A DNA stretch of 29,635 nucleotides. Origin: a virus. Of the stretch, positions 4,363-29,635 are shown piece by piece. How positions within the stretch are numbered: position 1 is the stretch's first letter; the number at the start of each line of letters is the position of its first letter. Where the stretch lies: positions 1 to 29,635 of the IMG/VR virus record IMGVR_UViG_3300042563_001410. One strand, given 5' to 3'. The notes under the pieces are model-generated. The model was not told the DNA's origin and ran no database searches. It saw only the letters and a program-made list of their open reading frames with translations. The position numbers and the translations under genes were made by a program.

Positions 4363-4831
4363 GCATTCCATCATGGGAGACTTCCTTAAGAAGTTTTCGT
4401 TACCTGACCGCCCTGAAGGTAGCGTTCCTGATATTCCATTGTACCTAGATGAACTTCCAGACAACCAACTTATGGAGTTTTATACTCTTTTTATGGCCTG
4501 GGTTTCATTTGCTAAAGCCGATATGGTTTTGGCTGAGATTGATGAAGAGCGTGCTGCAAATGATTTAAAGGTCATTGAAGCAGAAACTCTTATCGGTCAA
4601 TGGAGTGACAAAGAAAAAGGTGACACTGTCACACTCGCTAAAGCACGTAGAGACACAAAACCTGAGGTTATTGAAGCCCAGCAATTGTACTCAGAAAAGC
4701 GTGCTTACCGTAAACTAGTTGAGTCTGTTTTTGAACGTTGTGAACGTGGTGCTCAGGTAATTAGTCGTGAGTTAAGCAGGCGCATTAGCCTTGCTCCTCA
4801 AGAGCGCAGGCAGGCACGGTACTCAGCATGA
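4340..4831 (+). CDS. helical coiled-coil hypothetical protein
   Basis: About 163 residues, not recognised. A TTG start at 4340 is chosen because AAGGAAG sits about 7 bases upstream; the ATG at 4373 is the alternative and has no clear ribosome site. After a Pro-rich head (SVPDIPLYLDELP) the protein is almost entirely charged helix, with an Arg-rich C-terminus (SRELSRRISLAPQERRQ). It overlaps the exonuclease gene by 23 bp and the next by 4 bp, so it belongs to the same replication operon. Possibly a scaffold or DNA-binding accessory. Confidence 0.75.
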   Translation: MNNPLTPKHSIMGDFLKKFSLPDRPEGSVPDIPLYLDELPDNQLMEFYTLFMAWVSFAKADMVLAEIDEERAANDLKVIEAETLIGQWSDKEKGDTVTLAKARRDTKPEVIEAQQLYSEKRAYRKLVESVFERCERGAQVISRELSRRISLAPQERRQARYSA

Positions 4832-5091
4832 GAGACAAATTTACTTATGGTGGGGGCACCCATGTTGCACTTCGCTACGCTCGTATGAACCGTACACGCC
4901 CAATTAGTGTTGAACAGACTCTGGCATTGTTCCCCCACAAGTTTAGTAAACCCAGCAGAGTTAAAGAATCTTTTAATACTTTAACCCGACATGGCCTCCT
5001 TACAGAAACTAAAAAAGGTTGGGTAATCACCACTCGTGGTATTGACCACCTTACAAACATCTCTAAACTTTATTTAGGTGAGTTTAAATGA
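4828..5091 (+). CDS. winged-helix DNA-binding-like protein
   Basis: An 87-residue protein. SVEQTLALFPHKFSKPSRVKESFNTLTRHGLLTETKKGWVITTRGIDHL has the helix-turn-helix plus wing pattern of small phage winged-helix proteins (recognition helix near residues 42-55, beta wing with GWVITTRG). The wing is encoded partly by a 12/13 match to the dispersed 13-bp repeat (4998-5010). ATGA overlaps with both neighbours. Probably a regulator or accessory DNA-binding protein; target unknown. Confidence 0.72.
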   Translation: MRDKFTYGGGTHVALRYARMNRTRPISVEQTLALFPHKFSKPSRVKESFNTLTRHGLLTETKKGWVITTRGIDHLTNISKLYLGEFK

Positions 5092-6404: not shown

Positions 6405-6695
6405 ATGTCACAAGAACTGAACACCACCATTGACGATATTCTGAAGGTATCGGGTTCTAGTAACCCGCAATCCGTAGGTTCCATCATGGCTCGTGCTATT
6501 AATGCTGGGCAAATGCCTAAAATGCGTGCTATTGGCGCATCAGCAGTAAACCAAGCAGCCAAAGCCTGCGCTATCGCCCGTGGCTTTGTTGCCCCACGTG
6601 GAATTGATTTATCTTTTGTTATTGGGTTTGATGACATCCCAGGCAATGACGGAGAAACAATTTCTGCAATTTCTTTTAAACCAATTATTAAGTAA
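6405..6695 (+). CDS. SpoVS-family (Alba-like) protein
   Basis: 96 residues closely matching the stage V sporulation protein S pattern: LKVSGSSNPQSVGSIMARAI, then IGASAVNQAAKACAIARGFVAP, then GIDLSF. SpoVS is a small Alba-like protein considered to bind nucleic acid. The N-terminal extension MSQELNTTIDD is short. A strong ribosome site (CTAGGAG, 7 bases before ATG) and a gap from the previous gene suggest a new translation unit heading the long coupled operon up to 11.9 kb. In sporulators it affects spore coat and septation; in a phage, a nucleoid- or RNA-binding role is more likely (inference). Confidence 0.88.
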   Translation: MSQELNTTIDDILKVSGSSNPQSVGSIMARAINAGQMPKMRAIGASAVNQAAKACAIARGFVAPRGIDLSFVIGFDDIPGNDGETISAISFKPIIK

Positions 6696-16569: not shown

Positions 16570-16864
16570 TCACCGTACAGACATACTTAAAGAGTCAATT
16601 AATCTCATTAATGGTGACCGTAACGATGCTTACGGTGACCCAATATATGATTTTCAAACGACCGCTACATTTTGGCAGACGTACCTTGAACGCACCATAG
16701 AGGCACGTGGTGGTTTTGACATAAAGCCACATGACATAGCAGTCATGATGGACTTGTTAAAGATTGCACGAATCTCGTGGTCTCCTGAAAAAAGAGACCA
16801 TTGGGCTGACCTTGGGGGATACACAGGTCTTGGATGGGACTGTGTAGTTAGGCAAGATGAGTAG
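16553..16864 (+). CDS. DUF6378-like phage protein
   Basis: 103 residues matching a family common in phages: NGDRNDAYGDP near the N-terminus, FQTTATFWQTYLE, DIAVMMDLLKIARI and a C-terminal HWADLGGYTGLGWD. Family members are all-helical and often sit near nucleotide-metabolism genes, consistent with the HAD nucleotidase upstream. Biochemical role unknown. It overlaps its neighbours by 17 bp and 1 bp. Confidence 0.82.
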   Translation: MTTIDNHRTDILKESINLINGDRNDAYGDPIYDFQTTATFWQTYLERTIEARGGFDIKPHDIAVMMDLLKIARISWSPEKRDHWADLGGYTGLGWDCVVRQDE

Positions 16865-17274
16865 TGGACACACCACAATGGATTTCTAAGAGTCTTTGTA
16901 AAAACCGACATATTGATATTTGGTACCCCCCATTAGATACCGACAACCCTGACAAATACTATGGAGTTGCACGAGAAGTGTGTCGTAGATGCCCTGTATG
17001 GAAAGAATGCTTAGACGCAGGCACTACAGAAACTTGGGGAATGTGGGGTGGACTGACCCCCCTAGAACGGACAGTCATTACCAATAAGACACCAAAACCA
17101 AGTGCCATAAGGTCACACGGTACTTGGGTGCGTTACCGACAAGGTTGCCGATGCACAGATTGCAATGCTGTTGCAGAAACCAAGCATGAAACTTTGAATA
17201 TTAATTCGGTGCCACTTATGACCGAAGAATTGGGTGATTTAGATATCCTGAGGTTCTTGCTTTTCAACCAATAA
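16864..17274 (+). CDS. whiB: WhiB-family Fe-S transcription regulator with extra C-terminal zinc-type motif
   Basis: 136 residues, GTG start overlapping the previous stop. The four cluster-binding Cys are C12, C40, C43 and C49 (C-x2-C-x5-C), followed by the diagnostic turn GMWGGLTPLER (59-69). WhiB proteins hold a 4Fe-4S cluster and bind the main sigma factor; they occur only in Actinobacteria and their phages. Beyond the WhiB domain is HGTWVRYRQGCRCTDCNA, a motif frequent in actinophage proteins that probably binds zinc. It is the last gene before a strong terminator. Confidence 0.93.
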   Translation: MDTPQWISKSLCKNRHIDIWYPPLDTDNPDKYYGVAREVCRRCPVWKECLDAGTTETWGMWGGLTPLERTVITNKTPKPSAIRSHGTWVRYRQGCRCTDCNAVAETKHETLNINSVPLMTEELGDLDILRFLLFNQ

Positions 17275-17975: not shown

Positions 17976-18152
17976 ATGTATAGGAAGACATATAAATGCG
18001 ACTCATGTAATGTCACACTGACAGTATTCGTACCCGTTACAGAAAATCCTACACACCCTTGCTCAAAGCACGCTAATAAAACGAGGAAATTAATTGAAGT
18101 TGAAACTGGGAATAGCCAGCGGGGACAGAGTCCCACCACAGAGGTCACCTGA
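17976..18152 (+). CDS. small zinc-ribbon protein, leaderless
   Basis: 58 residues: MYRKTYKCDSCNVTL ... HPCSKH ... RKLIEVE, a CxxC knuckle followed by a looser Cys/His pair, typical of short phage zinc ribbons. No ribosome site precedes the ATG, but a -10 hexamer ends 7 bases upstream, pointing to leaderless translation. The last 59 bp overlap the start of the glycosyltransferase gene in another frame. Confidence 0.66.
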   Translation: MYRKTYKCDSCNVTLTVFVPVTENPTHPCSKHANKTRKLIEVETGNSQRGQSPTTEVT

Positions 18153-19179
18153 TAACAAAAGCCATTGGGGTGGTGCAGGTTGGGTACGACTAGGACAGTA
18201 CGAACCCTTGCTAGAAACCGATACTTTTATTGGGACTCTTGTATGGAACAGAACGCACTTCTCTATACAAACCGATGGAGATTCTACGCTCCATGATGTT
18301 GACATCATTATCATGCAACGACTAATGCATGACACCCTTCCTGAACACATGAAGTTGGCACAGAAAGCGGGTCAGATTATTATCAATGACCTTGATGACT
18401 GGTACTGGGGACTGGACACAACCAACCTTGCTTTTGCTGCAAGTCACCCAAAAACCAGCCCAAACGAAAACACCAATCATTACAAAAAGGTACTTGCTAC
18501 AAGCGACAGAATAACCGTATCCACACCGTACCTAAGAGACCGACTACTAAAAATGTTTAGTAATTGTCCACCCATAGATGTGTTACTGAATACTGTTGAT
18601 GTAAAGCGATTCAATATCCACGAACACATTACAGAAACTAAACCAATTGTTGGATGGGTGGGCTCAACCAACCACAGAAGTGGTGACCTTGAAACTGTTG
18701 CTGGCACTATCCCACCATTACAGAAACTTGGTTTAATCTCTCTCCAGCATAGTGGTGCGCACCCCAATGCACCTTCGCTTGCATCCAAATGGAACATTAC
18801 AGAAACTTCTGTAACTTCGCTCCCAGCAACTGACCCTGAAGATTATCCAAACTTACTCACAATGGATATTGGTATTGCACCTCTACGGGACACCCCATTC
18901 AATCATGCTAAGTCTGACATCAAGATTCTTGAATACTCTGCTTCAGGTATTCCGTGGGTTGCATCGGGGTTACCTGCTTATGAGACATTACAGAAACTTT
19001 GGGGAGTTGGCAGAGTTGCCAAAAAGAACAAAGCAAAAGAATGGCAGAAGCACATCACAGCATTATGTGACCCAAAGGTTCGTGCAGAAGAAGGGCAAGC
19101 ACTACGAGAAGCCTCTTGGTCAAGAGACATCCTCGTAGGTGCTGATACCTTTAACTCTTACCTAAACGCTTTGCTCTGA
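18094..19179 (+). CDS. glycosyltransferase (GT-B, GT4-like)
   Basis: 361 residues, TTG start with GAGGAA 6 bases upstream. The N-terminal half has a phage GT pattern (DVDIIIMQRL, IINDLDDWYW, TVSTPYLRDRL); the C-terminal half has IVGWVGSTNHRSGDLE and DIGIAPLRDTPFNHAKSDIKILEYSASGIPWVAS, the donor-binding region of GT4-like enzymes with conserved Glu and Gly. Likely transfers a sugar to phage DNA, virion protein or host wall; the dehydratase at 14820 could supply the donor. Four copies of the 13-bp repeat lie inside it in two reading frames. Ends 18 bp inside the convergent WhiB gene. Confidence 0.87.
   Translation: MKLKLGIASGDRVPPQRSPDNKSHWGGAGWVRLGQYEPLLETDTFIGTLVWNRTHFSIQTDGDSTLHDVDIIIMQRLMHDTLPEHMKLAQKAGQIIINDLDDWYWGLDTTNLAFAASHPKTSPNENTNHYKKVLATSDRITVSTPYLRDRLLKMFSNCPPIDVLLNTVDVKRFNIHEHITETKPIVGWVGSTNHRSGDLETVAGTIPPLQKLGLISLQHSGAHPNAPSLASKWNITETSVTSLPATDPEDYPNLLTMDIGIAPLRDTPFNHAKSDIKILEYSASGIPWVASGLPAYETLQKLWGVGRVAKKNKAKEWQKHITALCDPKVRAEEGQALREASWSRDILVGADTFNSYLNALL
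18627..18639 (+). repeat. 13-bp dispersed motif, exact
   Basis: CATTACAGAAACT inside the glycosyltransferase gene, read as ITET. Confidence 0.85.
18716..18728 (+). repeat. 13-bp dispersed motif, exact
   Basis: CATTACAGAAACT inside the glycosyltransferase gene, read in another frame as PLQKL. Confidence 0.85.
18795..18807 (+). repeat. 13-bp dispersed motif, exact
   Basis: CATTACAGAAACT inside the glycosyltransferase gene, read as ITET. Confidence 0.85.
18986..18998 (+). repeat. 13-bp dispersed motif, exact
   Basis: CATTACAGAAACT inside the glycosyltransferase gene, read as TLQKL. Confidence 0.85.
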
Positions 19180-19470
19180 AACATTACAGAAACTCTTTAG
19201 AAGACCCTTACGCTCTTTAGGCATCAACCCACCCCAAATACCATGCTTGATGTCATTGTCTACTGCAAAGCGCAAACACTCAACTGTCACGGGGCATTCA
19301 GCACAAGTGTCAACTGCCTTGGCAATACTTAACGCCACTGTTTTGACAGTGCGCCCAGCACCAAACTCAAAAAAGTGAGTGTTGCCCATACCAGCACACA
19401 ATGCATGGTCACGCCATGCACCATTGTCAGGTGATTTCAACATATTGTATTCAATTTGCTCTACGGTCAT
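19162..19470 (-). CDS. whiB: WhiB-family Fe-S transcription regulator, leftward
   Basis: 102 residues, the only convincing leftward gene. Cluster Cys are C25, C56, C59 and C65 (C-x2-C-x5-C), followed by HGIWGGLMPKER (76-87), the WhiB signature. GGAGGAAT directly precedes its ATG. It converges with the glycosyltransferase (18-bp overlap) and diverges from the 19544 operon, so it is placed like a control gene for the right-hand region. It probably binds the host primary sigma factor and changes promoter choice. A 13-bp motif lies in its 3' end, oriented opposite to the gene. Confidence 0.95.
   Translation of the reverse strand: MTVEQIEYNMLKSPDNGAWRDHALCAGMGNTHFFEFGAGRTVKTVALSIAKAVDTCAECPVTVECLRFAVDNDIKHGIWGGLMPKERKGLLKSFCNVSEQSV
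19182..19194 (+). repeat. 13-bp dispersed motif, exact
   Basis: CATTACAGAAACT just after the glycosyltransferase stop, within the 3' end of the leftward WhiB gene but still on the plus strand. Orientation therefore follows the genome arm, not the local gene. Confidence 0.85.
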
Positions 19471-19904: not shown

Positions 19905-20531
19905 ATGCCAAACTGGGTATCAACCACACTGAGCGTCAAAGGCTCCAAAGAAGAAGTACATCGTTTCATTGATGGGATAACTGACTCAAAGATTCTTCAA
20001 TCTTATGTGCCATGTCCTGAAGAACTTCAAAACACTGTTGCAGGCTCTGTCCCCGAAGACAAGGCAGAAGAACACCGTAAGCAAAAAGAGTCCAACATTG
20101 CCAAGTATGGTCACAAAGATTGGTACGACTGGGCTTATGATAACTGGGGTAGCAAATGGGGTGACTGTGATACAGACATCCAACCAGTTTCTGAAGACTC
20201 TTTTGGTGTGTGGGAAGTCATCATTCAATACCAAACTGCTTGGTCTTGTGCTGACACAGGCTTTCTCAAAGTCTCTCAAATGTTTCCATCTTTGTATTTT
20301 ACTTTTGACTATGACGAAGAGGCTGGATTCTTCTCAGGTCTTCATGTATTTCATAACGGCAACATCATCTTTGAATCCATGTACGAGCCTTGCAATTACC
20401 CACATCCGATTGATTGGGACGATTGTGAATCTATGGACAAGTACGAAGAGTGGAAAGTAAAAAACAGCGATACGATTCATGCCGAGTATGTGTTGTTTAT
20501 GGCAAACAAACATTACACAAACTCTAATTAA
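19905..20531 (+). CDS. YubB/DUF1281-like ferredoxin-fold protein
   Basis: 208 residues. The N-terminus MPNWVSTTLSVKGSKEEVHRFIDGI matches the YubB ferredoxin-like domain (MPNW ... L-V-G ... F), common on plasmids and phages. A Trp/Asp-rich middle (WYDWAYDNWGSKWGDCDTD) and a second half (FFSGLHVFHNG) complete the usual two-part layout. No catalytic role is established for the family. GAGGGA ribosome site. The last codons contain a CATTACACAAACT copy read as HYTNS. Confidence 0.8.
   Translation: MPNWVSTTLSVKGSKEEVHRFIDGITDSKILQSYVPCPEELQNTVAGSVPEDKAEEHRKQKESNIAKYGHKDWYDWAYDNWGSKWGDCDTDIQPVSEDSFGVWEVIIQYQTAWSCADTGFLKVSQMFPSLYFTFDYDEEAGFFSGLHVFHNGNIIFESMYEPCNYPHPIDWDDCESMDKYEEWKVKNSDTIHAEYVLFMANKHYTNSN
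20511..20523 (+). repeat. 13-bp dispersed motif, C variant
   Basis: CATTACACAAACT at the 3' end of the YubB-like gene, read as HYTNS, the third reading frame. Confidence 0.8.
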
Positions 20532-20548
20532 GAAAAGGAACCATTTTG

Positions 20549-20896
20549 ATGTTGACACACAAACCGATTGGATTTGAAGGGACTGTCTGTTGGAAGGACA
20601 GCCCTGATAGCCAAGATTACTTTTACTTCTCATTTAGTGAAGAGTTGTTGAACCACGAAGGACAACCAGCCGAAGAGGACATCTACGGAGTCCGTGATGA
20701 CAACATCTTCTTTTATTTAGATGATGCTCAACAAGAGTCATTACATAAAGCGATAGAAAAAAACTATGTCAATGCTTTTGACATTGGTGAAGAGTGGTTT
20801 ATTGACCTCTCAGAACCATACGAGTTTATTTACGAACTTGCGTATGAGGACAACATCGTCCACATGGCAGTCACCAAAGATGAGATGGTGGACTGA
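20549..20896 (+). CDS. acidic hypothetical protein, 115 aa
   Basis: ATG at 20549 with AAGGAA about 8 bases upstream. Rich in aromatic and acidic residues (DYFYFSFSEELL, NIFFYLDDAQQ, EPYEFIYELAYEDN), probably an alpha/beta fold. No family recognised. Its stop overlaps the next start (TGATG). Confidence 0.7.
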   Translation: MLTHKPIGFEGTVCWKDSPDSQDYFYFSFSEELLNHEGQPAEEDIYGVRDDNIFFYLDDAQQESLHKAIEKNYVNAFDIGEEWFIDLSEPYEFIYELAYEDNIVHMAVTKDEMVD

Positions 20897-21306
20897 TGCA
20901 AACTTTTGTACCCGAACGCACTTTTGCAGACATTGCTTTAGTTCTTGACTACAAGCGTCTTGGTAAACAGCGTGTAGAAGTATTACAAATCTTGCGTGCC
21001 AACCTTGGGCTCACCAAAGGATGGGTCAACCATCCAGCATCAAAGATGTGGGCAGGTCACGAAGCAGGTCTCTGCGCTTATGGTCTCGCAATGTGTGACG
21101 CATGGACTGCCAAAGGTTACAAAGATACTTGTGCTTATAAAATGCAAGAGTTAATACGACCCGATGCGAATGACCTTCCCGACTGGTGGGGACGCACTGA
21201 CATCATTGAATCACATCGTTCTAACCTCGTTGCAAAGTTCCCCGAACATTACAGAAACTTTTATCCCAATGTGGTGAGTGATTTGCCATATGTGTGGGTA
21301 GTCTGA
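20896..21306 (+). CDS. pyrimidine-dimer DNA glycosylase / endonuclease V-like
   Basis: 136 residues in the pattern I associate with the Pyr_excise group: MQTFVPERTFADIALVLDYKRLGKQRVE, NHPASKMWAGHEAGLCAYGLAM, ESHRSNLVAKFPEHYRNFYP and a PYVWV end. Enzymes of this type remove UV-induced pyrimidine dimers; a repair function suits a phage exposed to sunlight in surface water (inference). The distant T4 DenV is not obviously alignable by eye. It contains a 13-bp motif read as HYRNF. Confidence 0.72.
   Translation: MQTFVPERTFADIALVLDYKRLGKQRVEVLQILRANLGLTKGWVNHPASKMWAGHEAGLCAYGLAMCDAWTAKGYKDTCAYKMQELIRPDANDLPDWWGRTDIIESHRSNLVAKFPEHYRNFYPNVVSDLPYVWVV
21247..21259 (+). repeat. 13-bp dispersed motif, exact
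   Basis: CATTACAGAAACT near the end of the glycosylase-like gene, read as HYRNF, a third reading frame. Confidence 0.85.
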
Positions 21307-21334
21307 CAACAACGCCAACAGGAGGCAACAAACA

Positions 21335-21622
21335 ATGAATTATCAGCAATTACAGGATTACGCACTGTTCTGTTCTTTAGAACACCATCTTTGCAATGTA
21401 GAAGAACTGATGGATAATGGTTTTATCCTCAGTGACATCCTCGCACTCGTAGAGGCTGGCTCTAACGCACCCTTGATTTGGGAACAGTACGAGTACGCAC
21501 CACGAGAAGATGTCGTAGAGATGATTGAAGACGCACGAGGTGTGCATCTGTATAACTTTATGCGCCTTCTGACAGAAATCAATGGAACAGAATGGGCAAC
21601 CAATTTCAAGGCAGGTAATTAG
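21335..21622 (+). CDS. acidic helical protein, 95 aa
   Basis: CAGGAGG ribosome site about 9 bases upstream. Helical, acidic sequence (SLEHHLCNVEELMDNGFILSDILALVEAG ... REDVVEMIEDARGVHLYNFMRLL). No known family. Confidence 0.7.
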   Translation: MNYQQLQDYALFCSLEHHLCNVEELMDNGFILSDILALVEAGSNAPLIWEQYEYAPREDVVEMIEDARGVHLYNFMRLLTEINGTEWATNFKAGN

Positions 21623-21624
21623 TC

Positions 21625-21930
21625 ATGCAAGCACAAGAGTTCTACGAACACATTGCACAAAATTACACAGAGATTCGCAGTAAATGTTTAAAGGCTGTGT
21701 GGAAGATGCGCAAAGACCCCGAAGTGTGGGACAAAGAAAACAAAAGTTGGTTCCCTGAAGTTGACCAGTGGGATTCATTTGATGTAGTCACCGACCTCAA
21801 TTACTATACAGACGGTAATCAAATGGATTACCCAAGTGACCAAAAGCCAACCATGTATGTAACTGCTTACCTTTACGATGGTGAAAATATCATTACAGAA
21901 ACTTATGTAAAGATTGATTTGAGCAAGTAA
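21625..21930 (+). CDS. hypothetical protein, 101 aa
   Basis: Starts 2 bases after the previous stop. Helical N-terminus (FYEHIAQNYTEIRSKCLKAVWKM) and a beta-rich C-terminus (MYVTAYLYDGENIITETYVKIDL) that includes a 13-bp motif read as ITET. Coupled to the next gene by TAATG. Not recognised. Confidence 0.7.
   Translation: MQAQEFYEHIAQNYTEIRSKCLKAVWKMRKDPEVWDKENKSWFPEVDQWDSFDVVTDLNYYTDGNQMDYPSDQKPTMYVTAYLYDGENIITETYVKIDLSK
21891..21903 (+). repeat. 13-bp dispersed motif, exact
   Basis: CATTACAGAAACT in the 3' part of the 21625 gene, read as ITET. Confidence 0.85.
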
Positions 21931-22235
21931 TGACAACATCACAGCAGATTGCACGATTTATTACAAACCTTGACGATGACGAGTTTGTTGGCTTCAATGT
22001 TTTTGACAAACTCTGTGAGCAGTTCAACTGGCAAGGATTGGTGTTTGGTGATTTAGACATCAGCGCAGTATTCCATGAAGTTGCAGGGCACCCCATTACA
22101 GAAACTGAACTTGAAACAATTCGTGACACCATTGATTTGCATGACATTCTTATGTCGGCTTCACAGGTTGTGATTGAACATCTCACAACTGTAGTATCTC
22201 AATATCTTGACCAACAGGAGGACAAAGATGAGTAA
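21930..22235 (+). CDS. hypothetical protein, 101 aa
   Basis: TAATG coupled. Mostly helical: FITNLDDDEFVGFNVFDKLCEQFN and TELETIRDTIDLHDILMSASQVVIEHL. Holds a 13-bp motif (22094) read as ITET. Overlaps the next gene by 8 bp. Unknown family. Confidence 0.7.
   Translation: MTTSQQIARFITNLDDDEFVGFNVFDKLCEQFNWQGLVFGDLDISAVFHEVAGHPITETELETIRDTIDLHDILMSASQVVIEHLTTVVSQYLDQQEDKDE
22094..22106 (+). repeat. 13-bp dispersed motif, exact
   Basis: CATTACAGAAACT inside the 21930 gene, read as ITET. Confidence 0.85.
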
Positions 22236-23370: not shown

Positions 23371-23417
23371 CATTACACAAACTTTGTGTTGTTTTCTTAT
23401 TACCTCTCCTGTAAGGT
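23371..23417 (+). promoter_or_regulatory. 13-bp motif (C variant) coupled to promoter
   Basis: CATTACACAAACT (23371-23383), 5 bases, TTGTTT (23389-23394), 17 bases, TAAGGT (23412-23417). The motif and following bases make the palindrome ACACAAA-C-TTTGTGT. It would drive the 23525 gene. The -10 is partly in a hairpin arm. Confidence 0.58.
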
Positions 23418-23423
23418 AATAAG
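23396..23423 (+). repeat. perfect 10-bp inverted repeat
   Basis: CTTATTACCT and AGGTAATAAG around an 8-base loop (CTCCTGTA). It straddles the candidate -10, so it is an operator or leader hairpin. There is no T run, so it is not an intrinsic terminator. Confidence 0.7.
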
Positions 23424-23431
23424 TGTGTGGG

Positions 23432-23486
23432 GGTTCCCCGATTTCTTACACGAGATTAATTTCTTACACGAGAATGACAGGGAACC
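23432..23486 (+). repeat. direct repeat pair inside an inverted repeat
   Basis: ATTTCTTACACGAGA occurs at 23441-23455 and 23459-23473 (18-bp period), flanked by GGTTCCC (23432-23438) and GGGAACC (23480-23486). It lies between the candidate promoter and the ribosome site of the 23525 gene, so it would be in the leader RNA. Confidence 0.7.
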
Positions 23487-23524
23487 TTTCACATAAAACA
23501 AACTAATTTTCTGAGGAGGGAATT

Positions 23525-23827
23525 ATGAATGTAGCAGAACAAGCACTGGGGACAGTTGACCCATGTGTATATTGCAAACGCTCAACAGCGTTTGGTGCGG
23601 GATTTGGTTTATTCGTTAACCGTATCCCAGTTGACGATGGTTGGGGCTGTGCCGAGTGTTCAGGATTTGAATGTGACGAGTGCAACCAACAGATTTATCT
23701 TGACTGTGAGATTCGTGTGGAGTTCACAGATGAAGAAGGTAACTACCATTACGGAAACTACCACGAAGAATGCTATGACTCTGAGAAGCATGGCATCAGC
23801 GAAGACCACGAAGAAACCGAGGAATAA
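23525..23827 (+). CDS. Cys-rich zinc-binding protein, 100 aa
   Basis: GAGGAGG about 8 bases upstream. CVYC near residue 14, then a cluster CAECSGFECDEC (about 42-53), CE and a C-terminal HEECYD: enough ligands for two zinc sites, LIM- or RING-like in spacing. Acidic C-terminus (SEDHEETEE) whose codons GAGGAA serve as ribosome site for the next gene. Possible adaptor or transcription-modifying protein; not recognised. Confidence 0.74.
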   Translation: MNVAEQALGTVDPCVYCKRSTAFGAGFGLFVNRIPVDDGWGCAECSGFECDECNQQIYLDCEIRVEFTDEEGNYHYGNYHEECYDSEKHGISEDHEETEE

Positions 23828-23830
23828 ATA

Positions 23831-24139
23831 ATGTCTAACAAAAAGCCATACACCGTAACCATGACAGGAACTTATTTTGTTTTTGCCGAATCAGAAAGTG
23901 AAGCAAATGACATTGTCTCTGAAGCAATCTTGCACATTGACAAAGTTGACAACAGGATTCATGATAGCGAAACCCATTGGGCACAAGCAGTCATTCTTCA
24001 AGGTCACTACACAACTATTGTCTATGACGGGTGTGATGCCAGCGATTATGATGCCCGAATCGCATCGTTGGCAGGTACTGCCGCAACTCATGACTGGTAC
24101 CTTGCCCTCATGAACACCATTACAGAAACTGAGGAATAA
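23831..24139 (+). CDS. small alpha/beta protein, DpnD-like start, 102 aa
   Basis: Ribosome site GAGGAA lies in the end of the previous gene. Head KPYTVTMTGTYFVFAESESEANDIVSEAI follows the strand-strand-E-S-EA pattern of the 19544 product. The C-terminus ends TITETEE, encoded by a 13-bp motif (24118) directly followed by the ribosome site of the next gene. Function unknown. Confidence 0.7.
   Translation: MSNKKPYTVTMTGTYFVFAESESEANDIVSEAILHIDKVDNRIHDSETHWAQAVILQGHYTTIVYDGCDASDYDARIASLAGTAATHDWYLALMNTITETEE
24118..24130 (+). repeat. 13-bp dispersed motif, exact
   Basis: CATTACAGAAACT at the end of the 23831 gene, read as ITET, 12 bases before the next ATG. Confidence 0.85.
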
Positions 24140-24142
24140 ACA

Positions 24143-24385
24143 ATGTCTTACCCAATCATCTATCTTGAAGAATCCAATAAAGAAATTGAAGACTGTACAG
24201 TTCTTCACGCACTCAAGGATTTGTTTGTTCGCATACAACTCCGTGATGGTCATTCATGGGGTTATGTAGAAGTCACCGATTACAGCGATGGAGTTCTGTG
24301 GTTCACTGTTGGCTCTTCAGTTGACGAACCTTCATACCAAGTCATGGCACCAATCACATCAATTCAGACAATCACCTACATCTGA
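24143..24385 (+). CDS. small beta-rich protein, 80 aa
   Basis: GAGGAA in the preceding stop region. Sequence of alternating beta-type segments (FVRIQLRDGHSWGYVEVTDYS; VLWFTVGSSVDEPSYQVMAP), a probable small barrel or SH3-like fold. No family recognised. Confidence 0.68.
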   Translation: MSYPIIYLEESNKEIEDCTVLHALKDLFVRIQLRDGHSWGYVEVTDYSDGVLWFTVGSSVDEPSYQVMAPITSIQTITYI

Positions 24386-24432
24386 CATTACACAAACTTT
24401 GTGTTGTGTTTCCATAAACCGACCGTTATATT
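24386..24432 (+). promoter_or_regulatory. 13-bp motif (C variant) coupled to strong promoter
   Basis: CATTACACAAACT (24386-24398), 5 bases, TTGTGT (24404-24409), 17 bases, TATATT (24427-24432). The palindrome ACACAAA-C-TTTGTGT overlaps the start of the -35. It drives the 24467 gene; it is the clearest of the motif-promoter pairs. Confidence 0.75.
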
Positions 24433-24466
24433 TACAACTACCAACAACTAGTTCCGAGGAGGGACA

Positions 24467-24808
24467 ATGTCACGAGACATGAGCACATCAACAAATATCC
24501 ATCCACACTCAAAAGAAATGTCATTTGACTTACACCATATGCCTCAGTTTGGCACGACAACTTTTAAGGTTGTTTTGAATGATTACAACGCAATAAACAT
24601 CTTTCTTCCAATGACACCACAAGAAATTATTGCATTGCTTGAAGAGCAAGTTGCCAACTTAGTTGACAACTTCAATGCCATTACCGAAGACGATGACATT
24701 ACAGAAACTGATACAGAATCTGACGAGTCCACAGAACTCAAGACCCTTGCAGAAAAGTTCAACGCTTCACCAATCGGTTTAGTCGTGAATAACATTCTCA
24801 ACAAATAA
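24467..24808 (+). CDS. acidic hypothetical protein, 113 aa
   Basis: GAGGAGG ribosome site. The head is His/Met-rich (NIHPHSKEMSFDLHHMPQFG), the middle helical (MTPQEIIALLEEQVANLVDNF), and then EDDDITETDTESDESTE, an acidic tract encoded by the 13-bp motif plus ACAGAATCTGACG. First gene behind a motif-linked promoter. Not recognised. Confidence 0.7.
   Translation: MSRDMSTSTNIHPHSKEMSFDLHHMPQFGTTTFKVVLNDYNAINIFLPMTPQEIIALLEEQVANLVDNFNAITEDDDITETDTESDESTELKTLAEKFNASPIGLVVNNILNK
24697..24709 (+). repeat. 13-bp dispersed motif, exact
   Basis: CATTACAGAAACT inside the 24467 gene, read as ITET. The following 17 bases are nearly identical to those after the intergenic copy at 25893. Confidence 0.85.
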
Positions 24809-24840
24809 ACAACATCTCAACATTACAGGAAGTAGAGAAA

Positions 24841-25266
24841 ATGGAAAACAGTACAAAAAATGGATGGACACTCGTAGGAGAATGTGCAGTTGACTCAGGT
24901 CAACTCATGGTCTGCGACCCGTGTTACATCAAGTCACATTGGGATAGCAATGAGTTCACATCCAGCACTGATGAAGACAAGAATGATTTCTCGTATGACG
25001 GTGCGTGCGTTACAACAATTCGTCACACAGCAGGTCAGTTAGGAAAGAGTCTCGGCGTAGCAACATCCACTGCTGGTGGGGACGGTGTGTTCCCTGTGTA
25101 TGTGCGTTACGAGAATGGCACAGCAATGGAGTTTCGTATAATGCTTGACGGTGCAAGGTTGACCAAGAATGGTGACCCCGTTGAGGAGTGCCCTGACTGT
25201 GGCTCTGACATGACAGAAACTTCATGCGACTGGTGCGCCGAAGAAGACGAGGACGAGGACGAGTGA
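24841..25266 (+). CDS. DUF4241-like hypothetical protein with C-terminal zinc knuckles
   Basis: 141 residues. VGECAVDSGQLMVCDPCYI near the N-terminus and GKSLGVATSTAGGDGVFPVYVRYENG in the middle recall a phage family in which a D-SG-DPCY motif precedes a GDG-YPVYV strand. The end holds CPDCGSDMTETSCDWC and a poly-Glu/Asp tail. Role unknown. The ribosome site is a degenerate motif copy (CATTACAGGAAGT, 24821-24833). Confidence 0.7.
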   Translation: MENSTKNGWTLVGECAVDSGQLMVCDPCYIKSHWDSNEFTSSTDEDKNDFSYDGACVTTIRHTAGQLGKSLGVATSTAGGDGVFPVYVRYENGTAMEFRIMLDGARLTKNGDPVEECPDCGSDMTETSCDWCAEEDEDEDE

Positions 25267-25514
25267 TGGCACCACAAGAGTTACTCAAGACGGTAAAGGA
25301 ACTGCGTAAAACCTTTGATGGCATTCTTTCTTTCTACAACGAACTTAGTGATGAAGCGTTTGAAGAATTGTATGCACGCATGGAAACACTCATCAAAAAA
25401 CTTGAGCAAGACGCACAATCCAACTTGGCAGACATTACACAAACTCCTAAGTTGCAAGTCCTGACCAAGACCGATACATTTATCAACAACCAAGTTCCAC
25501 AGGAGGAATCATGA
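25266..25514 (+). CDS. helical hypothetical protein, 82 aa
   Basis: TGATG coupling selects the ATG at 25266 over upstream in-frame codons. The chain is helical (LLKTVKELRKTFDGILSFYNELSDEAFEELYARMETLIKKLE), suggesting a coiled coil. Contains a C-variant motif (25433) read as ITQT. ATGA overlap with the next gene. Confidence 0.68.
   Translation: MAPQELLKTVKELRKTFDGILSFYNELSDEAFEELYARMETLIKKLEQDAQSNLADITQTPKLQVLTKTDTFINNQVPQEES
25433..25445 (+). repeat. 13-bp dispersed motif, C variant
   Basis: CATTACACAAACT inside the 25266 gene, read as ITQT. Confidence 0.8.
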
Positions 25515-25828
25515 CAACCAAATACCCCGAAGCACAAGTGCAACTAGTAGGTGAGGACGGTAATGCGTTCTCAATCCTTGCTCGCACGATGAAGGCATTG
25601 CGCAAAGCAGGCGTGCCCAGCGATGAAGTAACTGCGTACCACGAGGAAGCCACATCAGCCGACTACGGTCACTTGCTCCGCACCACGATGGCGTGGGTCA
25701 CCTGTGACATTGGTATGAGCGAAGAAACAGTAACATACTGTGGTATCTGTGGAATGGACTCTGACATCTATGCAGATGCAATGTGCGAAGATTGCTGGAA
25801 CGAAGCAGAAGACGAAGAAGAGAACTAA
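25511..25828 (+). CDS. conserved small protein with C-terminal zinc ribbon, 105 aa
   Basis: The N-terminal domain VQLVGEDGNAFSILARTMKALRKAG ... EEATSADYGHLLRTTMAWV follows a pattern I recall as widespread in phages and bacteria with no assigned role. Its C-terminus adds CGICGMDSDIYADAMCEDC, a four-Cys zinc ribbon, and an acidic tail. AGGAGG ribosome site. Last gene before a terminator. Confidence 0.76.
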   Translation: MTTKYPEAQVQLVGEDGNAFSILARTMKALRKAGVPSDEVTAYHEEATSADYGHLLRTTMAWVTCDIGMSEETVTYCGICGMDSDIYADAMCEDCWNEAEDEEEN

Positions 25829-25856
25829 GTAACATCTCACGCCCCCAGTGAGGGAG

Positions 25857-25883
25857 AAGGGACGGTGCAAACCGTCCCTTTTT
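25857..25883 (+). terminator. intrinsic terminator, GCAA loop
   Basis: Arms AAGGGACGGT (25857-25866) and ACCGTCCCTT (25871-25880), 10 perfect pairs around a GCAA tetraloop, then T run to 25883. Ends the operon of the preceding small genes. Confidence 0.92.
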
Positions 25884-25892
25884 CTTGCACCC

Positions 25893-25905
25893 CATTACAG
25901 AAACT
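25893..25905 (+). repeat. 13-bp dispersed motif, exact
   Basis: Intergenic CATTACAGAAACT, first of a doublet spaced 69 bp (next at 25962). No promoter hexamers at the usual offset. Confidence 0.85.
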
Positions 25906-25921
25906 AATACAGAATCTGACG

Positions 25922-25960
25922 AACCGATGTCACTGAAAAACCGATGTCACTAAAAAACCA
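25922..25960 (+). repeat. second intergenic repeat, two units
   Basis: ACCGATGTCACTGAAAAACC and a degenerate second unit CCGATGTCACTAAAAAACC lie back to back. Twenty-three bases from 25922 recur identically at 29335-29357. Confidence 0.82.
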
Positions 25961-25961
25961 A

Positions 25962-26008
25962 CATTACAGAAACTCTCTGTTGCAACCGACCGTTTTATTC
26001 CCTACGAT
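25962..26008 (+). promoter_or_regulatory. 13-bp motif coupled to promoter
   Basis: CATTACAGAAACT (25962-25974), 5 bases, TTGCAA (25980-25985), 17 bases, TACGAT (26003-26008). Faces the 26038 gene. Confidence 0.7.
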
Positions 26009-26037
26009 GAAGTCAACCCAACCACAGGAGGATGGAC

Positions 26038-26361
26038 ATGACAGTAATAACGGATTACTCGCAAGCAGTGCGTGACACACGCAACGCTTTGCGTTACCAC
26101 AAGCAACCAAGAACTTATACAAAAGCACATCTTGAGAAGTGGGGCGAGATTGCACAAATGACATACCCTGACACCAACGATTGTGTAAACCTTGACCTGC
26201 GCAACGCATTCGTACACGGATGCCTCTTGGGCTATGAGTTTGTACTCGTTCTTGACTCACCATCGTGCTACGACCGTTTGCAGGCTGATGCCTTCATTGC
26301 TGGTGTTGTCACTGGTGAGGTCTGCTGGAGTTTTGAGCATCGTGATGAGGACGACCTGTAA
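26038..26361 (+). CDS. hypothetical protein, 107 aa
   Basis: ATG at 26038 has AGGAGG exactly 6 bases upstream; the in-frame ATG at 26032 would abut that site. Helical head (YSQAVRDTRNALRYHKQPRTYTKAHLEKWGEIAQM), then NAFVHGCLLGYEFVLVLD and DAFIAGVVTGEVCWSFEH. No family recognised. First gene behind the motif-promoter at 25962. Confidence 0.7.
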   Translation: MTVITDYSQAVRDTRNALRYHKQPRTYTKAHLEKWGEIAQMTYPDTNDCVNLDLRNAFVHGCLLGYEFVLVLDSPSCYDRLQADAFIAGVVTGEVCWSFEHRDEDDL

Positions 26362-26366
26362 TGGAA

Positions 26367-26379
26367 CATTACACAAACT
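26367..26379 (+). repeat. 13-bp dispersed motif, C variant
   Basis: Intergenic CATTACACAAACT, 5 bases after the previous stop and about 50 bases before the next ATG. No clear -35/-10 pair follows. Confidence 0.8.
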
Positions 26380-26417
26380 CTCACGGACTCACTCCCAACT
26401 AAACGAAAGACAAGGAC

Positions 26418-26792
26418 ATGACAGAAACTCTTCCCAACACCTGTGACGGGTGTGGTGCGCCAGTCACACGGTGGTTGCCTGAAGAACCACCTGACCGTGG
26501 GTTGTCATTTGACATCACTGGTTCATACGCAGGCTTCACCGACAACTTTCAGAAACCTTTACATTTCCTTAGCCGACTTGACATTTGCCATGACTGTGTA
26601 ATTCGCCTTGTGGAATTGTTTCCAATCTTGCGACTCAAGTTTGGCGCAGGGTGCCACCCCTGTTGGGAAGACAAGCCCTGCTGTGCGCATTCATTTTCTA
26701 CCACGGAAGATAACTCACCACGAGTTCCAAATGACTCCCTGACAGGGTGGGTCAACATCAGTTATGACGAGTTGCGAGAACGGATTGTCTGA
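26418..26792 (+). CDS. Cys-rich zinc-binding protein, 124 aa
   Basis: CDGCG near the N-terminus, CHDC in the middle and CHPCWEDKPCCAH near residue 86 give several metal-ligand pairs. The start codon lies inside a motif variant (CATGACAGAAACT, 26417-26429), so the protein begins MTET. The ribosome site (AAGGA) is unusually close to the ATG. Unknown function. Confidence 0.7.
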   Translation: MTETLPNTCDGCGAPVTRWLPEEPPDRGLSFDITGSYAGFTDNFQKPLHFLSRLDICHDCVIRLVELFPILRLKFGAGCHPCWEDKPCCAHSFSTTEDNSPRVPNDSLTGWVNISYDELRERIV

Positions 26793-26799
26793 TGAATCA

Positions 26800-26862
26800 C
26801 ATTACAGAAACTTTCATGTTGCTCTTCGCAAGAGATTGCCCTATCTTTGGCAGTGGGCAATC
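26800..26862 (+). promoter_or_regulatory. 13-bp motif coupled to promoter with inverted repeat
   Basis: CATTACAGAAACT (26800-26812), 6 bases, TTGCTC (26819-26824), 17 bases, TATCTT (26842-26847). GATTGCCC (26834-26841) and GGGCAATC (26855-26862) flank the -10 as an inverted repeat, a possible operator. The region resembles that before the 27395 gene. Confidence 0.7.
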
Positions 26863-26888
26863 CCGTCCAATTCCACAGGAGGAATCAA

Positions 26889-27242
26889 ATGTCAACTATC
26901 TCACCTAACCCAACAGGGACAGCAGTGTTTGGTGCTTACCCATACACAGTTTGCACAGAGTGCGAATGGGAGCAGTTCTATCATCGTGGCAACGAGCGTG
27001 GTGCCAAGAACTGGGGTCATCGTCACAGCGCAGACACAGGTCACAAAGTTCGCATGAAGAATCACCACGAGTTCGCAGATGTGCTGTGGACGCAAGAGTT
27101 CGTGACCACAAACTTTGGCGAGCCTGCAATGCAGATGTGGCTCGGCACATTGAAGCCATTCGTCAACCACCTCGTTGGCAAGTATTCGGCTGGCACATAT
27201 TCACTTGAGCAGTGCGAGCAACTGTACGCAATCTTCTGCTAA
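26889..27242 (+). CDS. zinc-finger-like protein, 117 aa (DUF7848-like)
   Basis: CAGGAGG about 7 bases upstream selects the ATG at 26889. CTECEWEQFYH ... HRHSADTGHKV has the CxxC ... H-x-TGH layout of small phage/actinobacterial zinc proteins. The C-terminus is helical with two Cys. Single-gene unit: motif, promoter, gene, UUCG terminator. Confidence 0.75.
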   Translation: MSTISPNPTGTAVFGAYPYTVCTECEWEQFYHRGNERGAKNWGHRHSADTGHKVRMKNHHEFADVLWTQEFVTTNFGEPAMQMWLGTLKPFVNHLVGKYSAGTYSLEQCEQLYAIFC

Positions 27243-27260
27243 TCAGCCCCCCACGGAACG

Positions 27261-27291
27261 AGCCCTCGCACTTCGGTGCGGGGGCTTTTTT
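27261..27291 (+). terminator. intrinsic terminator, UUCG loop
   Basis: Arms AGCCCTCGCAC (27261-27271) and GTGCGGGGGCT (27276-27286), 11 pairs with one G-U, around TTCG, then six T. Nearly the same stem as those at 28058 and 29252. Confidence 0.95.
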
Positions 27292-27302
27292 CGTTGTCAG
27301 GA

Positions 27303-27350
27303 CATTACACAAACTTTGGTGTTGTGTCTTGTGGGCGATTGCTCTATCTT
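27303..27350 (+). promoter_or_regulatory. 13-bp motif (C variant) coupled to promoter
   Basis: CATTACACAAACT (27303-27315), 6 bases, TTGTGT (27322-27327), 17 bases, TATCTT (27345-27350). The 5' leader after it (CATCCCGTCC ... CCACAGGAGGAATCAA) is nearly identical to the one before 26889. Confidence 0.72.
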
Positions 27351-27394
27351 TGGTGGTGGGGCATCCCGTCCCGTTTCCACAGGAGGAATCAAAA

Positions 27395-28033
27395 ATGACA
27401 ACATACAAACCACGACCTGCGCCATCTGAGCGTGAGCAAAAAGTCATCATGCACTTGATGACCTATGCCAATGGCAACTCTTTCTACACCGACATCTTGA
27501 ACAAGTCCATGCGCTTCGTTCTCTCTGAAGGTCAGATGGCTTGCGTTGAGCGCAACTTTGAGACCGACAAGGTCAAGGCTGAGAAGAAGGCTGAAATGAT
27601 TGCCAACAAGCAAGTTGTCGTAGGCGGTCGCAACAAGAGCGTCATTGGCAAAATTGTGTCTCTCAAGTTTGACACCGATGGGCGCAACAACAACACCCCG
27701 ATTGCCAAGGTCATCCTTGAGCGTGAAGATGGCACCAAGTTGTGGGGCACCATTCCCGTGGTTGACTTCACCAAGATGCGTGTGGTTCTCAACGAGGGTG
27801 ACACACTTGCGTTCTTGGCAAACATCACCAAGTCGTCTGACGACCCCACATTCGGGTTCTTCAGGTACGGCGCAAAGTTGGCTCACTGGGGCGAGAAGGG
27901 TGGCACTGCCACCCTTCCTGATGGCACTTACAAGTTCGTGTCTTACTCGGACGAGACCGAGTTGTTCGGCGGCGAGCCTGACGAATTGCCCGAACCAGCA
28001 GACGAGATTGATGGCTTCACCGAGCCCTTCTAG
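27395..28033 (+). CDS. hypothetical protein, 212 aa, highly GC-biased codons
   Basis: The ATG at 27395 follows CAGGAGGAATCAAAA; longer upstream reading would run through the terminator. The N-terminus is helical (SEREQKVIMHLMTYANG), the centre basic (KVKAEKKAEMIANKQVVVGGRNKSVIGKIV) and the remainder beta-rich (IAKVILEREDGTKLWGTIPVVDF). The C-terminus is acidic, a layout seen in many single-strand DNA-binding or other nucleic-acid proteins, though no family is recognised. Third positions are markedly C/G, unlike the left half, which suggests high expression. Single-gene unit next to the DUF932 gene. Confidence 0.8.
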   Translation: MTTYKPRPAPSEREQKVIMHLMTYANGNSFYTDILNKSMRFVLSEGQMACVERNFETDKVKAEKKAEMIANKQVVVGGRNKSVIGKIVSLKFDTDGRNNNTPIAKVILEREDGTKLWGTIPVVDFTKMRVVLNEGDTLAFLANITKSSDDPTFGFFRYGAKLAHWGEKGGTATLPDGTYKFVSYSDETELFGGEPDELPEPADEIDGFTEPF

Positions 28034-28057
28034 CCCCCCAACAACTCCCCCAGCAGG

Positions 28058-28086
28058 AGCCCTCGCCCTTACGGGCGGGGGCTTTT
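28058..28086 (+). terminator. intrinsic terminator, UUAC loop
   Basis: Arms AGCCCTCGCCC (28058-28068) and GGGCGGGGGCT (28073-28083) around TTAC, then TTTT to 28086. Confidence 0.92.
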
Positions 28087-28099
28087 GTCGTTCTCAGAC

Positions 28100-28157
28100 C
28101 ATTACAGAAACTTTCACCGAGCGATTGTTGCTTTACTCACATGACCGCCCCTACAAT
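28100..28157 (+). promoter_or_regulatory. 13-bp motif coupled to promoter
   Basis: CATTACAGAAACT (28100-28112), 15 bases, TTGCTT (28128-28133), 18 bases, TACAAT (28152-28157). The gap to the -35 is about one helical turn longer than at the other sites. Confidence 0.65.
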
Positions 28158-28202
28158 CGGTCGTGGGGCAATACCGCCCCTTCCGATACAGGAGGACATC
28201 AA

Positions 28203-29228
28203 ATGTCACAGGAAACACTGGAATGGCTCAATCAGAACACTCTGATTGGATTCACTGAACGCCGTGGAAACGCATGGCACTACAAAGCATCTGAGCAGGG
28301 CTCGGAAAGCAATCACTACATTGGCGCAATCCCCGTTGCCGATGTGTATCGCCGTTTGCTCAACTGGCAGGCAGTAGAGGCACCAGCATTCGTTGGTATC
28401 CCGACCGCTGAGGGCTTCAACTATGTCTTGCAAAATGACCGCAAGTTCATCGTTCGCTCCGATGACCAGAGCGTGCTTGGCATCTTCAAGGATGGCTACC
28501 AAATCCACCAGTATGGCGAATGGCTCATTGACGCAGTCGCCAACATCGTGGACGACAGCAACCTTGCCATCGGTCAGGCTGGGCTTCTCAAGGGTGGCGC
28601 AGTTGCATGGGTCAGCATTGAGTTGCCTGAGAACATTGAAACCCCATCGGGCTTCACCGTTCGCCCGCAGTTGCTCGCAACGACCAGCCACAACGGCTCG
28701 CTTGCCACGACCCACAAGATGACCAACACCGTGGTCGTCTGCGACAACACGCTGTCCATGGGTCTCAACGATGGCAAGTCTGCTCACCGCACCCGTCACT
28801 CAAAGCACTCAGGCTTCAAGGTTCAGTCAGTGCGTGATGCCATCGGCGTGGTTCACACCATGACCGACAACATCATGGCTGAGATTGAGGCTTTGGCTTC
28901 TGTCTCGGTGACCGACAAGCAGTTCTTTGACATCGTGAACCGCCTTGTGCCAATCGCTGAGATGGGTGAAACCACCAACAGCGCACGCACCAAGTTGGGC
29001 AACAAGCAGGACGCAATCTTTGACCTGTACAGCAAGAACCCAATGGTCGCTCCATGGAAGGGCACCAAGTTGGGAGTCATTCAGGCTTTCAACACCTATG
29101 CCCACCACATCAGTGGCACCGACAAGAATCGTGCCCAGCGCAACCTGAGCAACGCAGTCATGGGCAAGACCGATGACGCTGACCTTCAGGTCTTGCAAGC
29201 GATTGACCTCGTCCTCGCCAACGCCTAA
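28203..29228 (+). CDS. DUF932 family protein, 341 aa
   Basis: The ATG at 28203 follows AGGAGGACATCAA. Features of the phage/plasmid DUF932 family: an N-terminal W-x-A-xx-Y-like region, VADVYRRLLNWQAVE, FNYVLQNDRKFIVRSDDQSVLG, then TNTVVVCDNTLSMGLNDG with HSKHSG, and a helical C-terminus. Members are common on actinobacterial phages and plasmids; biochemical role is unsettled, with links to replication and recombination proposed. Codons are strongly C/G-ending, as in the gene before. Own promoter and own UUCG terminator. Confidence 0.9.
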   Translation: MSQETLEWLNQNTLIGFTERRGNAWHYKASEQGSESNHYIGAIPVADVYRRLLNWQAVEAPAFVGIPTAEGFNYVLQNDRKFIVRSDDQSVLGIFKDGYQIHQYGEWLIDAVANIVDDSNLAIGQAGLLKGGAVAWVSIELPENIETPSGFTVRPQLLATTSHNGSLATTHKMTNTVVVCDNTLSMGLNDGKSAHRTRHSKHSGFKVQSVRDAIGVVHTMTDNIMAEIEALASVSVTDKQFFDIVNRLVPIAEMGETTNSARTKLGNKQDAIFDLYSKNPMVAPWKGTKLGVIQAFNTYAHHISGTDKNRAQRNLSNAVMGKTDDADLQVLQAIDLVLANA

Positions 29229-29251
29229 CAGCACAGCGACCCTCCACTGTG

Positions 29252-29280
29252 AGCCCTCGCCCTTCGGGGCGGGGGCTTTT
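29252..29280 (+). terminator. intrinsic terminator, UUCG loop
   Basis: Arms AGCCCTCGCCC (29252-29262) and GGGCGGGGGCT (29267-29277) around TTCG, then TTTT. Ends the DUF932 unit. Confidence 0.95.
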
Positions 29281-29281
29281 C

Positions 29282-29294
29282 AGTTTCTGTAATG
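29282..29294 (-). repeat. 13-bp dispersed motif, exact, inverted
   Basis: AGTTTCTGTAATG on the plus strand, i.e. CATTACAGAAACT on the minus strand, 2 bases beyond the terminator T run. First copy in the opposite direction. Confidence 0.85.
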
Positions 29295-29334
29295 TCTCCA
29301 GCAAAACCGATGGTGTTTTTTGATGTCTCCAAAA

Positions 29335-29357
29335 AACCGATGTCACTGAAAAACCGA
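29335..29357 (+). repeat. second intergenic repeat, copy at the right end
   Basis: Twenty-three bases identical to 25922-25944, containing ACCGATGTCACTGAAAAACC. Confidence 0.82.
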
Positions 29358-29392
29358 CCTCGTTTTTTTGAGCCTTTCCCAATGCCTGCAAG

Positions 29393-29405
29393 AGTTTCTG
29401 TAATG
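29393..29405 (-). repeat. 13-bp dispersed motif, exact, inverted
   Basis: Second minus-strand CATTACAGAAACT; both inverted copies are preceded on the minus strand by GGRGA. Confidence 0.85.
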
Positions 29406-29471
29406 TCCCCACGGCGTGTCAGCCCGTGTGCTGTGATGTCTGCGCTCGGTGGTGTTGCTTCATTCACGCTG

Positions 29472-29568
29472 TCCGTGAGGGATTGTTTCGTTGTTCGCTG
29501 TTGTTGTGATTCCGTGAGGGATTGTTTGATTGTTGTCGGGTTCGTTGTGGGTTCGTGAAAGTTTGTTT
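29472..29568 (+). repeat. degenerate repeats about 40 bp apart
   Basis: TCCGTGAGGGATTGTTT at 29472-29488 and 29511-29527 (17 bp identical), and a diverged TTCGTGAAAGTTTGTTT at 29552-29568. Spacing is 39 and 41 bp. Possible iterons or regulator sites. Confidence 0.7.
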
Positions 29569-29635
29569 GATTGTTTACGAGTTCGCCCAACACATTTGAA
29601 TCCGTGAAACACAAAACAAAAACACACGCATACAC

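What the first reader, a model, noticed from the sequence alone, without database searches (positions are those of the whole stretch)
23371..28157. The motif sits 5-6 bp upstream of -35 hexamers
At 23371, 24386, 25962, 26800 and 27303 the motif is followed after 5-6 bp by TTGTTT, TTGTGT, TTGCAA, TTGCTC or TTGTGT, then exactly 17 bp and a TANNNT -10. At 28100 the gap is 15 bp, roughly one helical turn more. A fixed face-of-helix position is expected of a bound activator or repressor. Promoters at 14617, 17939 and 19489 lack the motif, so two promoter classes may exist.
Basis: seen in the sequence. Interest (0 to 1): 0.82.

Follow-up and report, generated by a model that had tools for sequence, protein, structure and literature searches.

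The report
Phage promoters with a shared upstream motif
A group of closely related bacterial viruses carries about two dozen copies of one 13-letter DNA word, and seven copies sit at a set distance in front of promoters with a weak -35 box, which suggests that a still unidentified protein binds the word and switches on small phage genes.

Summary
CATTACASAAACT occurs exactly 20 times on + (18.6-28.1 kb) and twice on -. At 28100 the gap is 15 bp, but the spacer is 18, so the -10 lies 10-11 bp further away. The geometry recurs in a ~88%-identical relative (G002), including one promoter of its own, and spacer sequences are mostly unrelated. The -35s are TTG plus non-ACA; two of three motif-less promoters have perfect TTGACA. 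This favours an activator touching polymerase.

Eleven copies lie inside genes, in all three frames (0.41 expected under synonymous shuffling), with silent positions conserved. Copies point with transcription, and those without promoters cluster at gene 3' ends. This is also the anatomy of cluster A mycobacteriophage stoperators. No integrase or ParA was found in three partial genomes.

The binder is unknown. A small winged-helix protein (4828-5091) and WhiB-2 (19162-19470) are candidates. The motif is confined to one narrow actinophage lineage. Best reading: a lineage-specific regulon, activator at promoters, with stoperator-like repression the main rival.

The parts
23371..23417 (+). motif (23371-23383), gap 5, -35 TTGTTT at 23389, spacer 17, -10 TAAGGT at 23412; gene at 23525
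   Evidence: kept in G002 at 18711
24386..24432 (+). motif (24386-24398), gap 5, -35 TTGTGT at 24404, spacer 17, -10 TATATT at 24427; gene at 24467
   Evidence: kept in G002 at 19418
   Evidence: in G002 at 20318 with one changed base in the motif
25962..26008 (+). motif (25962-25974), gap 5, -35 TTGCAA at 25980, spacer 17, -10 TACGAT at 26003; gene at 26038
   Evidence: not kept as a promoter in G002
26800..26847 (+). motif (26800-26812), gap 6, -35 TTGCTC at 26819, spacer 17, -10 TATCTT at 26842; gene at 26889
   Evidence: kept in G002 at 21444
27303..27350 (+). motif (27303-27315), gap 6, -35 TTGTGT at 27322, spacer 17, -10 TATCTT at 27345; gene at 27395; partial duplicate of the 26800 promoter
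28100..28157 (+). motif (28100-28112), gap 15, -35 TTGCTT at 28128, spacer 18, -10 TACAAT at 28152; DUF932 gene at 28203
   Evidence: same gap 15 and spacer 18 in G002 at 21880
18627..19194 (+). five exact motif copies without promoter (18627, 18716, 18795, 18986 inside the glycosyltransferase gene 18094-19179; 19182 just after it, antisense to whiB-2)
   Evidence: first four identical in G002
20511..22106 (+). four exact motif copies without promoter inside genes (20511, 21247, 21891, 22094)
24118..24130 (+). exact motif copy without promoter, 9 nt before a stop codon
24697..24709 (+). exact motif copy without promoter, inside the gene 24467-24808
25893..25905 (+). exact intergenic motif copy without promoter
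26367..26379 (+). exact intergenic motif copy without promoter; the G002 copy (21384) stands just before a terminator hairpin
29282..29294 (-). reverse motif copy behind the terminator of the DUF932 gene
29393..29405 (-). second reverse motif copy in the non-coding right end
   Evidence: identical in G002
27260..27289 (+). terminator-like hairpin and T run ahead of the 27303 motif promoter
   Evidence: repeat family D12
28057..28086 (+). terminator-like hairpin and T run ahead of the 28100 motif promoter
   Evidence: repeat family D12
29251..29280 (+). terminator-like hairpin after the DUF932 gene
   Evidence: repeat family D12
4828..5091 (+). 87-aa winged-helix protein, candidate binder (conserved in G002, no tblastn match in G012, which lacks the motif)
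   Evidence: binding not tested
19162..19470 (-). WhiB-2, WhiB-like transcription factor divergent from the motif-bearing arm; candidate co-activator
   Evidence: Pfam Whib E 1.1e-17; best PDB matches are WhiB chains 8dy9/8dy7
16864..17274 (+). WhiB-1, second WhiB-like protein with a Cys-rich C-terminal tail
   Evidence: Pfam Whib E 2.5e-11

Best explanation
The 13-mer is the asymmetric binding site of a sequence-specific DNA-binding protein, most likely encoded by the phage. At seven right-arm promoters the bound protein lies just upstream of a -35 box that matches the primary sigma consensus only in TTG, and by contact with sigma region 4 or the alpha subunit it recruits host RNA polymerase (class II-like activation; motif at about -53 to -41, or one helical turn further out at 28100). 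This would switch on the small right-arm genes as a group. The copies without promoters are bound by the same protein and are kept by selection; they may act on elongation or on DNA structure. Shown: motif abundance, orientation, fixed gap, weak -35s, constraint on silent sites, confinement to one lineage. Inferred: the protein, its binding, the sign of regulation, the timing, and the role of the copies without promoters.
For: Gap 5-6 with spacer 17 in 6 of 20 copies, 0.07 expected. One-turn variant (gap 15, spacer 18) at 28100 kept in G002. G002 has its own further case (16579, gap 5, TTGCAA-17-TACCAT). Spacers mostly unrelated, so spacing is not just a copied promoter. Positions 4-6 of the motif-linked -35s match ACA at 2 of 21 places, while motif-less 14617 and 17939 have TTGACA. 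Coding copies 11 against 0.41 under synonymous shuffling; third positions 37/37 identical to G002 against 84% background. Motif absent from a syntenic 95-kb relative that keeps two WhiB genes, and the promoter pattern has only 7 scattered hits in 84,980 species genomes, about chance, which argues against a known host regulon.
Against: 13 of 20 + copies have no promoter, which an activator does not need. Orientation with transcription and the bias of promoter-less copies to gene 3' ends (p 0.004) fit stoperators as well or better. The weak -35 of motif-less 19489 breaks a clean two-class rule. No binder is identified, and no transcription start is mapped.
Confidence: 0.45

Rival explanations
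1. Stoperator-like repressor sites, as in cluster A mycobacteriophages: one protein binds the asymmetric 13-mer, blocks initiation at promoters by covering the -35 region, and blocks elongation at copies in and between genes.
For: Same anatomy as described for cluster A: more than twenty asymmetric 13-mers, oriented with transcription, some in promoters and most not (PMC9283540; PMC6550527). Here about 22 exact copies, all 20 right-arm copies in transcription orientation, promoter-less copies biased to gene ends.
Against: Fixed distance to seven promoters with a helical-turn variant, and non-consensus -35s, are not needed for repression. No tyrosine or serine integrase and no ParA ATPase was found in G001, G002 or G012, though all three records are possibly incomplete. 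No repressor homologue was recognised, but the L5 sequence could not be fetched for a direct test.
Confidence: 0.33
2. WhiB-like activation: WhiB-2 (or WhiB-1) bound to sigma region 4 reads the DNA just upstream of the -35, as WhiB7 does with its AT-rich site, perhaps with a DNA-binding partner as WhiB with WhiA.
For: Two WhiB genes in the window. WhiB7 binds just upstream of the -35 (PMC10245118; PMC6282962). WhiB-2 is closest to WhiB chains 8dy9/8dy7, is encoded divergently from the motif-bearing arm, and has diverged strongly (39%) in the relative without the motif.
Against: Wbl proteins other than WhiB7 lack a recognised DNA-binding motif and depend on partners; WhiB-2 has no AT-hook; copies in coding sequence without a promoter are not expected for a sigma-dependent reader. 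G012 has two WhiB genes but no such motif.
Confidence: 0.12
3. The motif is an UP-like element bound directly by the alpha subunit of host RNA polymerase, or a boundary sequence that spreads with shuffled gene cassettes, and no dedicated binder exists.
For: The motif lies at about -53 to -41, where UP elements act. Terminator-motif-promoter units bound exchangeable genes (27250-28203).
Against: Exact 13-bp conservation instead of mere A+T richness; exact copies in coding sequence in three frames with constrained silent sites.
Confidence: 0.07

Closest known systems
Cluster A mycobacteriophage (L5) operators and stoperators
   Same: Asymmetric 13-mer, more than 20 copies, oriented with transcription, partly at promoters and partly in genes or between them.
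   Different: Different sequence; seven copies at a fixed distance from weak -35 boxes; no integrase, ParA or repressor recognised; contractile-tailed phage.
WhiB7-dependent promoters of actinobacteria
   Same: Regulatory element immediately upstream of the primary sigma -35; WhiB-like proteins encoded nearby.
   Different: WhiB7 site is AT-rich and not a fixed 13-mer; phage WhiBs lack an AT-hook; many copies lie away from promoters.
Class II activator promoters (lambda CI at PRM, CRP class II; from own knowledge)
   Same: Site abutting a weak -35; helical phasing.
   Different: Those sites are palindromic and bound by dimers; here the conserved part is asymmetric and the TGT on the right varies in spacing.
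T4 middle promoters (MotA box; from own knowledge)
   Same: Phage-specific box and activator working with the host sigma factor.
   Different: MotA box replaces the -35 near -30; here it lies upstream of a retained TTG.

Membership tests
Cluster A-type stoperator system | 20-30 copies of an asymmetric 13-mer oriented with transcription | tested here: met
   20 + copies in a rightward arm, 2 - copies in the non-coding end
Cluster A-type stoperator system | Most sites not at promoters, in genes or short intergenic spaces | tested here: met
   13 of 20 + copies without promoter, biased to gene 3' ends
Cluster A-type stoperator system | Cognate two-domain immunity repressor in the genome | tested here: inconclusive
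   No repressor among proteins scanned; direct comparison with the L5 repressor not possible; genomes partial
Cluster A-type stoperator system | Temperate phage with integrase or parABS | tested here: inconclusive
   PF00589, PF00239 and PF13614 absent from G001, G002, G012, but these records may be incomplete
Cluster A-type stoperator system | Binder stops transcription in an orientation-dependent way | not testable with these tools
   needs transcription assays
Activator-dependent (class II-like) promoter | Site at a fixed distance upstream of the -35 | tested here: met
Activator-dependent (class II-like) promoter | Poor match of the -35 to consensus | tested here: met
   2 of 21 matches to ACA in motif promoters against TTGACA in two of three motif-less ones
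Activator-dependent (class II-like) promoter | Activity depends on the site and on a bound activator | not testable with these tools
   needs reporter assays
WhiB7-type promoter | AT-hook in the WhiB protein | tested here: not met
   no RGRP-type sequence in WhiB-1 or WhiB-2 (sequences)

The most novel reading that the evidence does not exclude
A lytic actinophage lineage carries a stoperator-like set of oriented 13-mers whose protein activates initiation at promoter copies and acts on elongation at copies in genes, giving one phage protein control over both steps in an arm of individually promoted small genes.
Probability: 0.15. Interest if true: 0.75.

Novelty: new variant of a known kind. 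Interest (0 to 1): 0.5.

Why it matters
If true, it defines an unrecognised regulon in an uncultured actinophage lineage and gives a ready set of about two dozen sites for finding its regulator. It would also show a stoperator-like site layout outside cluster A, tied here to promoters with weak -35 boxes, so that activation and elongation control by one site could be separated by experiment.

Tried and rejected
Palindromic operator: 23371 and 24386 read ACACAAACTTTGTGT, but the right half varies in spacing at 26800, 27303 and 18795 and is missing at 25433 and 28100, so a fixed dimer site is unlikely. Copied promoters as the cause of the fixed gap: spacers mostly unrelated. Protein-level repeat (ITET): copies occur in three frames. 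Host regulon: 7 single hits in 84,980 genomes, about chance. Related loci of DUF932 (45% identical) and of WhiB-1 (56-58%) lack the motif; the CCTGAGGAGG repeat found there is an RBS element. Viral scan hits L027-L030 are single chance matches. Structure of WhiB-2: model too poor to use (pLDDT 35). Fold match of the 4828 protein to the T4 MotA activation domain (Foldseek E 0.01) is not distinctive: many winged-helix proteins score alike. L5 record not held. Rfam: nothing in the window.

Full report
What is there. The 13-mer CATTACASAAACT occurs exactly 20 times on the + strand between 18627 and 28112 and twice on the - strand (29405-29393, 29294-29282); with up to 3 mismatches of the 14-mer there are 54 matches against 8.5 in shuffles. 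The window is 99.9% identical to part of a 77.7-kb viral contig, G001. In G001 only two further exact copies lie in the 65 kb to the left, and one more lies beyond the window's right end. The genome has a tail-sheath-like gene, a DUF932 gene and two WhiB genes, and its DUF932 relatives are mostly phages of actinobacteria, so it is an actinophage.

Promoter geometry. Six + copies are followed after 5 or 6 bp by TTGNNN-N17-TANNNT: the five listed and 25433, which lies in the end of a gene and was missed. The matched null gives 0.07. At 28100 the gap is 15 and the spacer 18, so the distance from motif end to -10 is 39 instead of 28-29, that is 10-11 bp more; G002 keeps exactly this. G002 has its own case at 16579. 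The spacers are mostly unrelated in sequence, though 26800 and 27303 are partial duplicates. All seven promoters precede a gene, nearly all with an AGGAGG-type ribosome-binding site.

Promoter strength. Beyond TTG the -35 hexamers match ACA at 2 of 21 places. Motif-less 14617 and 17939 carry TTGACA. 19489 carries TTGCTT and no motif. The contrast fits activator dependence but rests on three motif-less promoters.

Copies without promoters. Eleven exact copies lie inside genes, in frames 0, 1 and 2; synonymous shuffling gives 0.41. Ten of these lack a promoter; 25433 has one. In the promoter-less coding copies that align to G002 the third codon positions are identical in 37 of 37 cases against 84% background, p 0.0016. 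Over all aligned copies 11 of 20 are identical, against 33% for any 13-mer, p 0.036. From 19.18 kb on, promoter-less copies lie nearer gene ends than expected (p 0.004). Four copies sit in the glycosyltransferase gene ahead of the arm. So the word is constrained as DNA, or as RNA, beyond its role at promoters.

Distribution among relatives. Only near-identical contigs and the G002/G003 pair carry it. A syntenic 95-kb relative, G012, has two WhiB genes but not the motif, and its small-gene arm runs the other way.

Candidate binders. The 87-aa protein at 4828-5091 models as a winged helix (pLDDT 75), weakly matches a phage transcriptional-regulator family (E 7.6e-4), is 86% identical in G002 and has no tblastn match in G012. 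WhiB-2 is encoded divergently from the arm and is 84% identical in G002 but 39% in G012. Neither has been shown to bind.

Mechanism. I think the protein bound at the motif helps polymerase at weak promoters (0.45). Stoperator-like repression (0.33) fits the oriented copies in and after genes, as described for cluster A phages (PMC9283540; PMC6550527). Absence of integrase and ParA families in three partial records weakens but does not exclude it. One protein might do both.

Limits. All evidence is sequence. The contigs are metagenomic and possibly incomplete, the host is not identified, and only two independent genomes of the lineage (about 88% alike) inform conservation.

Noticed in passing
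G012 (IMG/VR 3300032233_001072), L057:10876-14098 +; L051 near 19935 and 20174: In a syntenic relative, many small genes are preceded by a type II hammerhead ribozyme shortly upstream of a CCTGAGGAGG ribosome-binding site. Five match Rfam Hammerhead_II at E 7e-5 to 0.01, just under its gathering score; further copies are visible by eye.
   Followed up: partly
G012 versus window 19.5-29.2 kb: The small-gene arm with DUF932 runs leftward in G012 and rightward here, next to the same WhiB-2 gene.
   Followed up: partly
window 29230-29635 and G001 beyond: About 1.1 kb without clear genes lies between the DUF932 terminator and the terminator of a leftward helicase gene, bracketed by motif copies that point towards the two hairpins.
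   Followed up: partly
window 25909-25979 and 29322-29358: A 17-bp unit GATGTCACTGAAAAACC is repeated next to motif copies (repeat family D3).
   Followed up: no
window 29464-29584: Three imperfect copies of a 41-bp unit around TTGTTTGATTGTT in the non-coding right end.
   Followed up: no
window 6405-6695: SpoVS-like protein (Pfam E 2.3e-20) in a phage.
   Followed up: no
window 27250-28203: Terminator-motif-promoter units flank a gene (27395-28033) that is absent from G002, suggesting exchange of gene cassettes at these units.
   Followed up: partly
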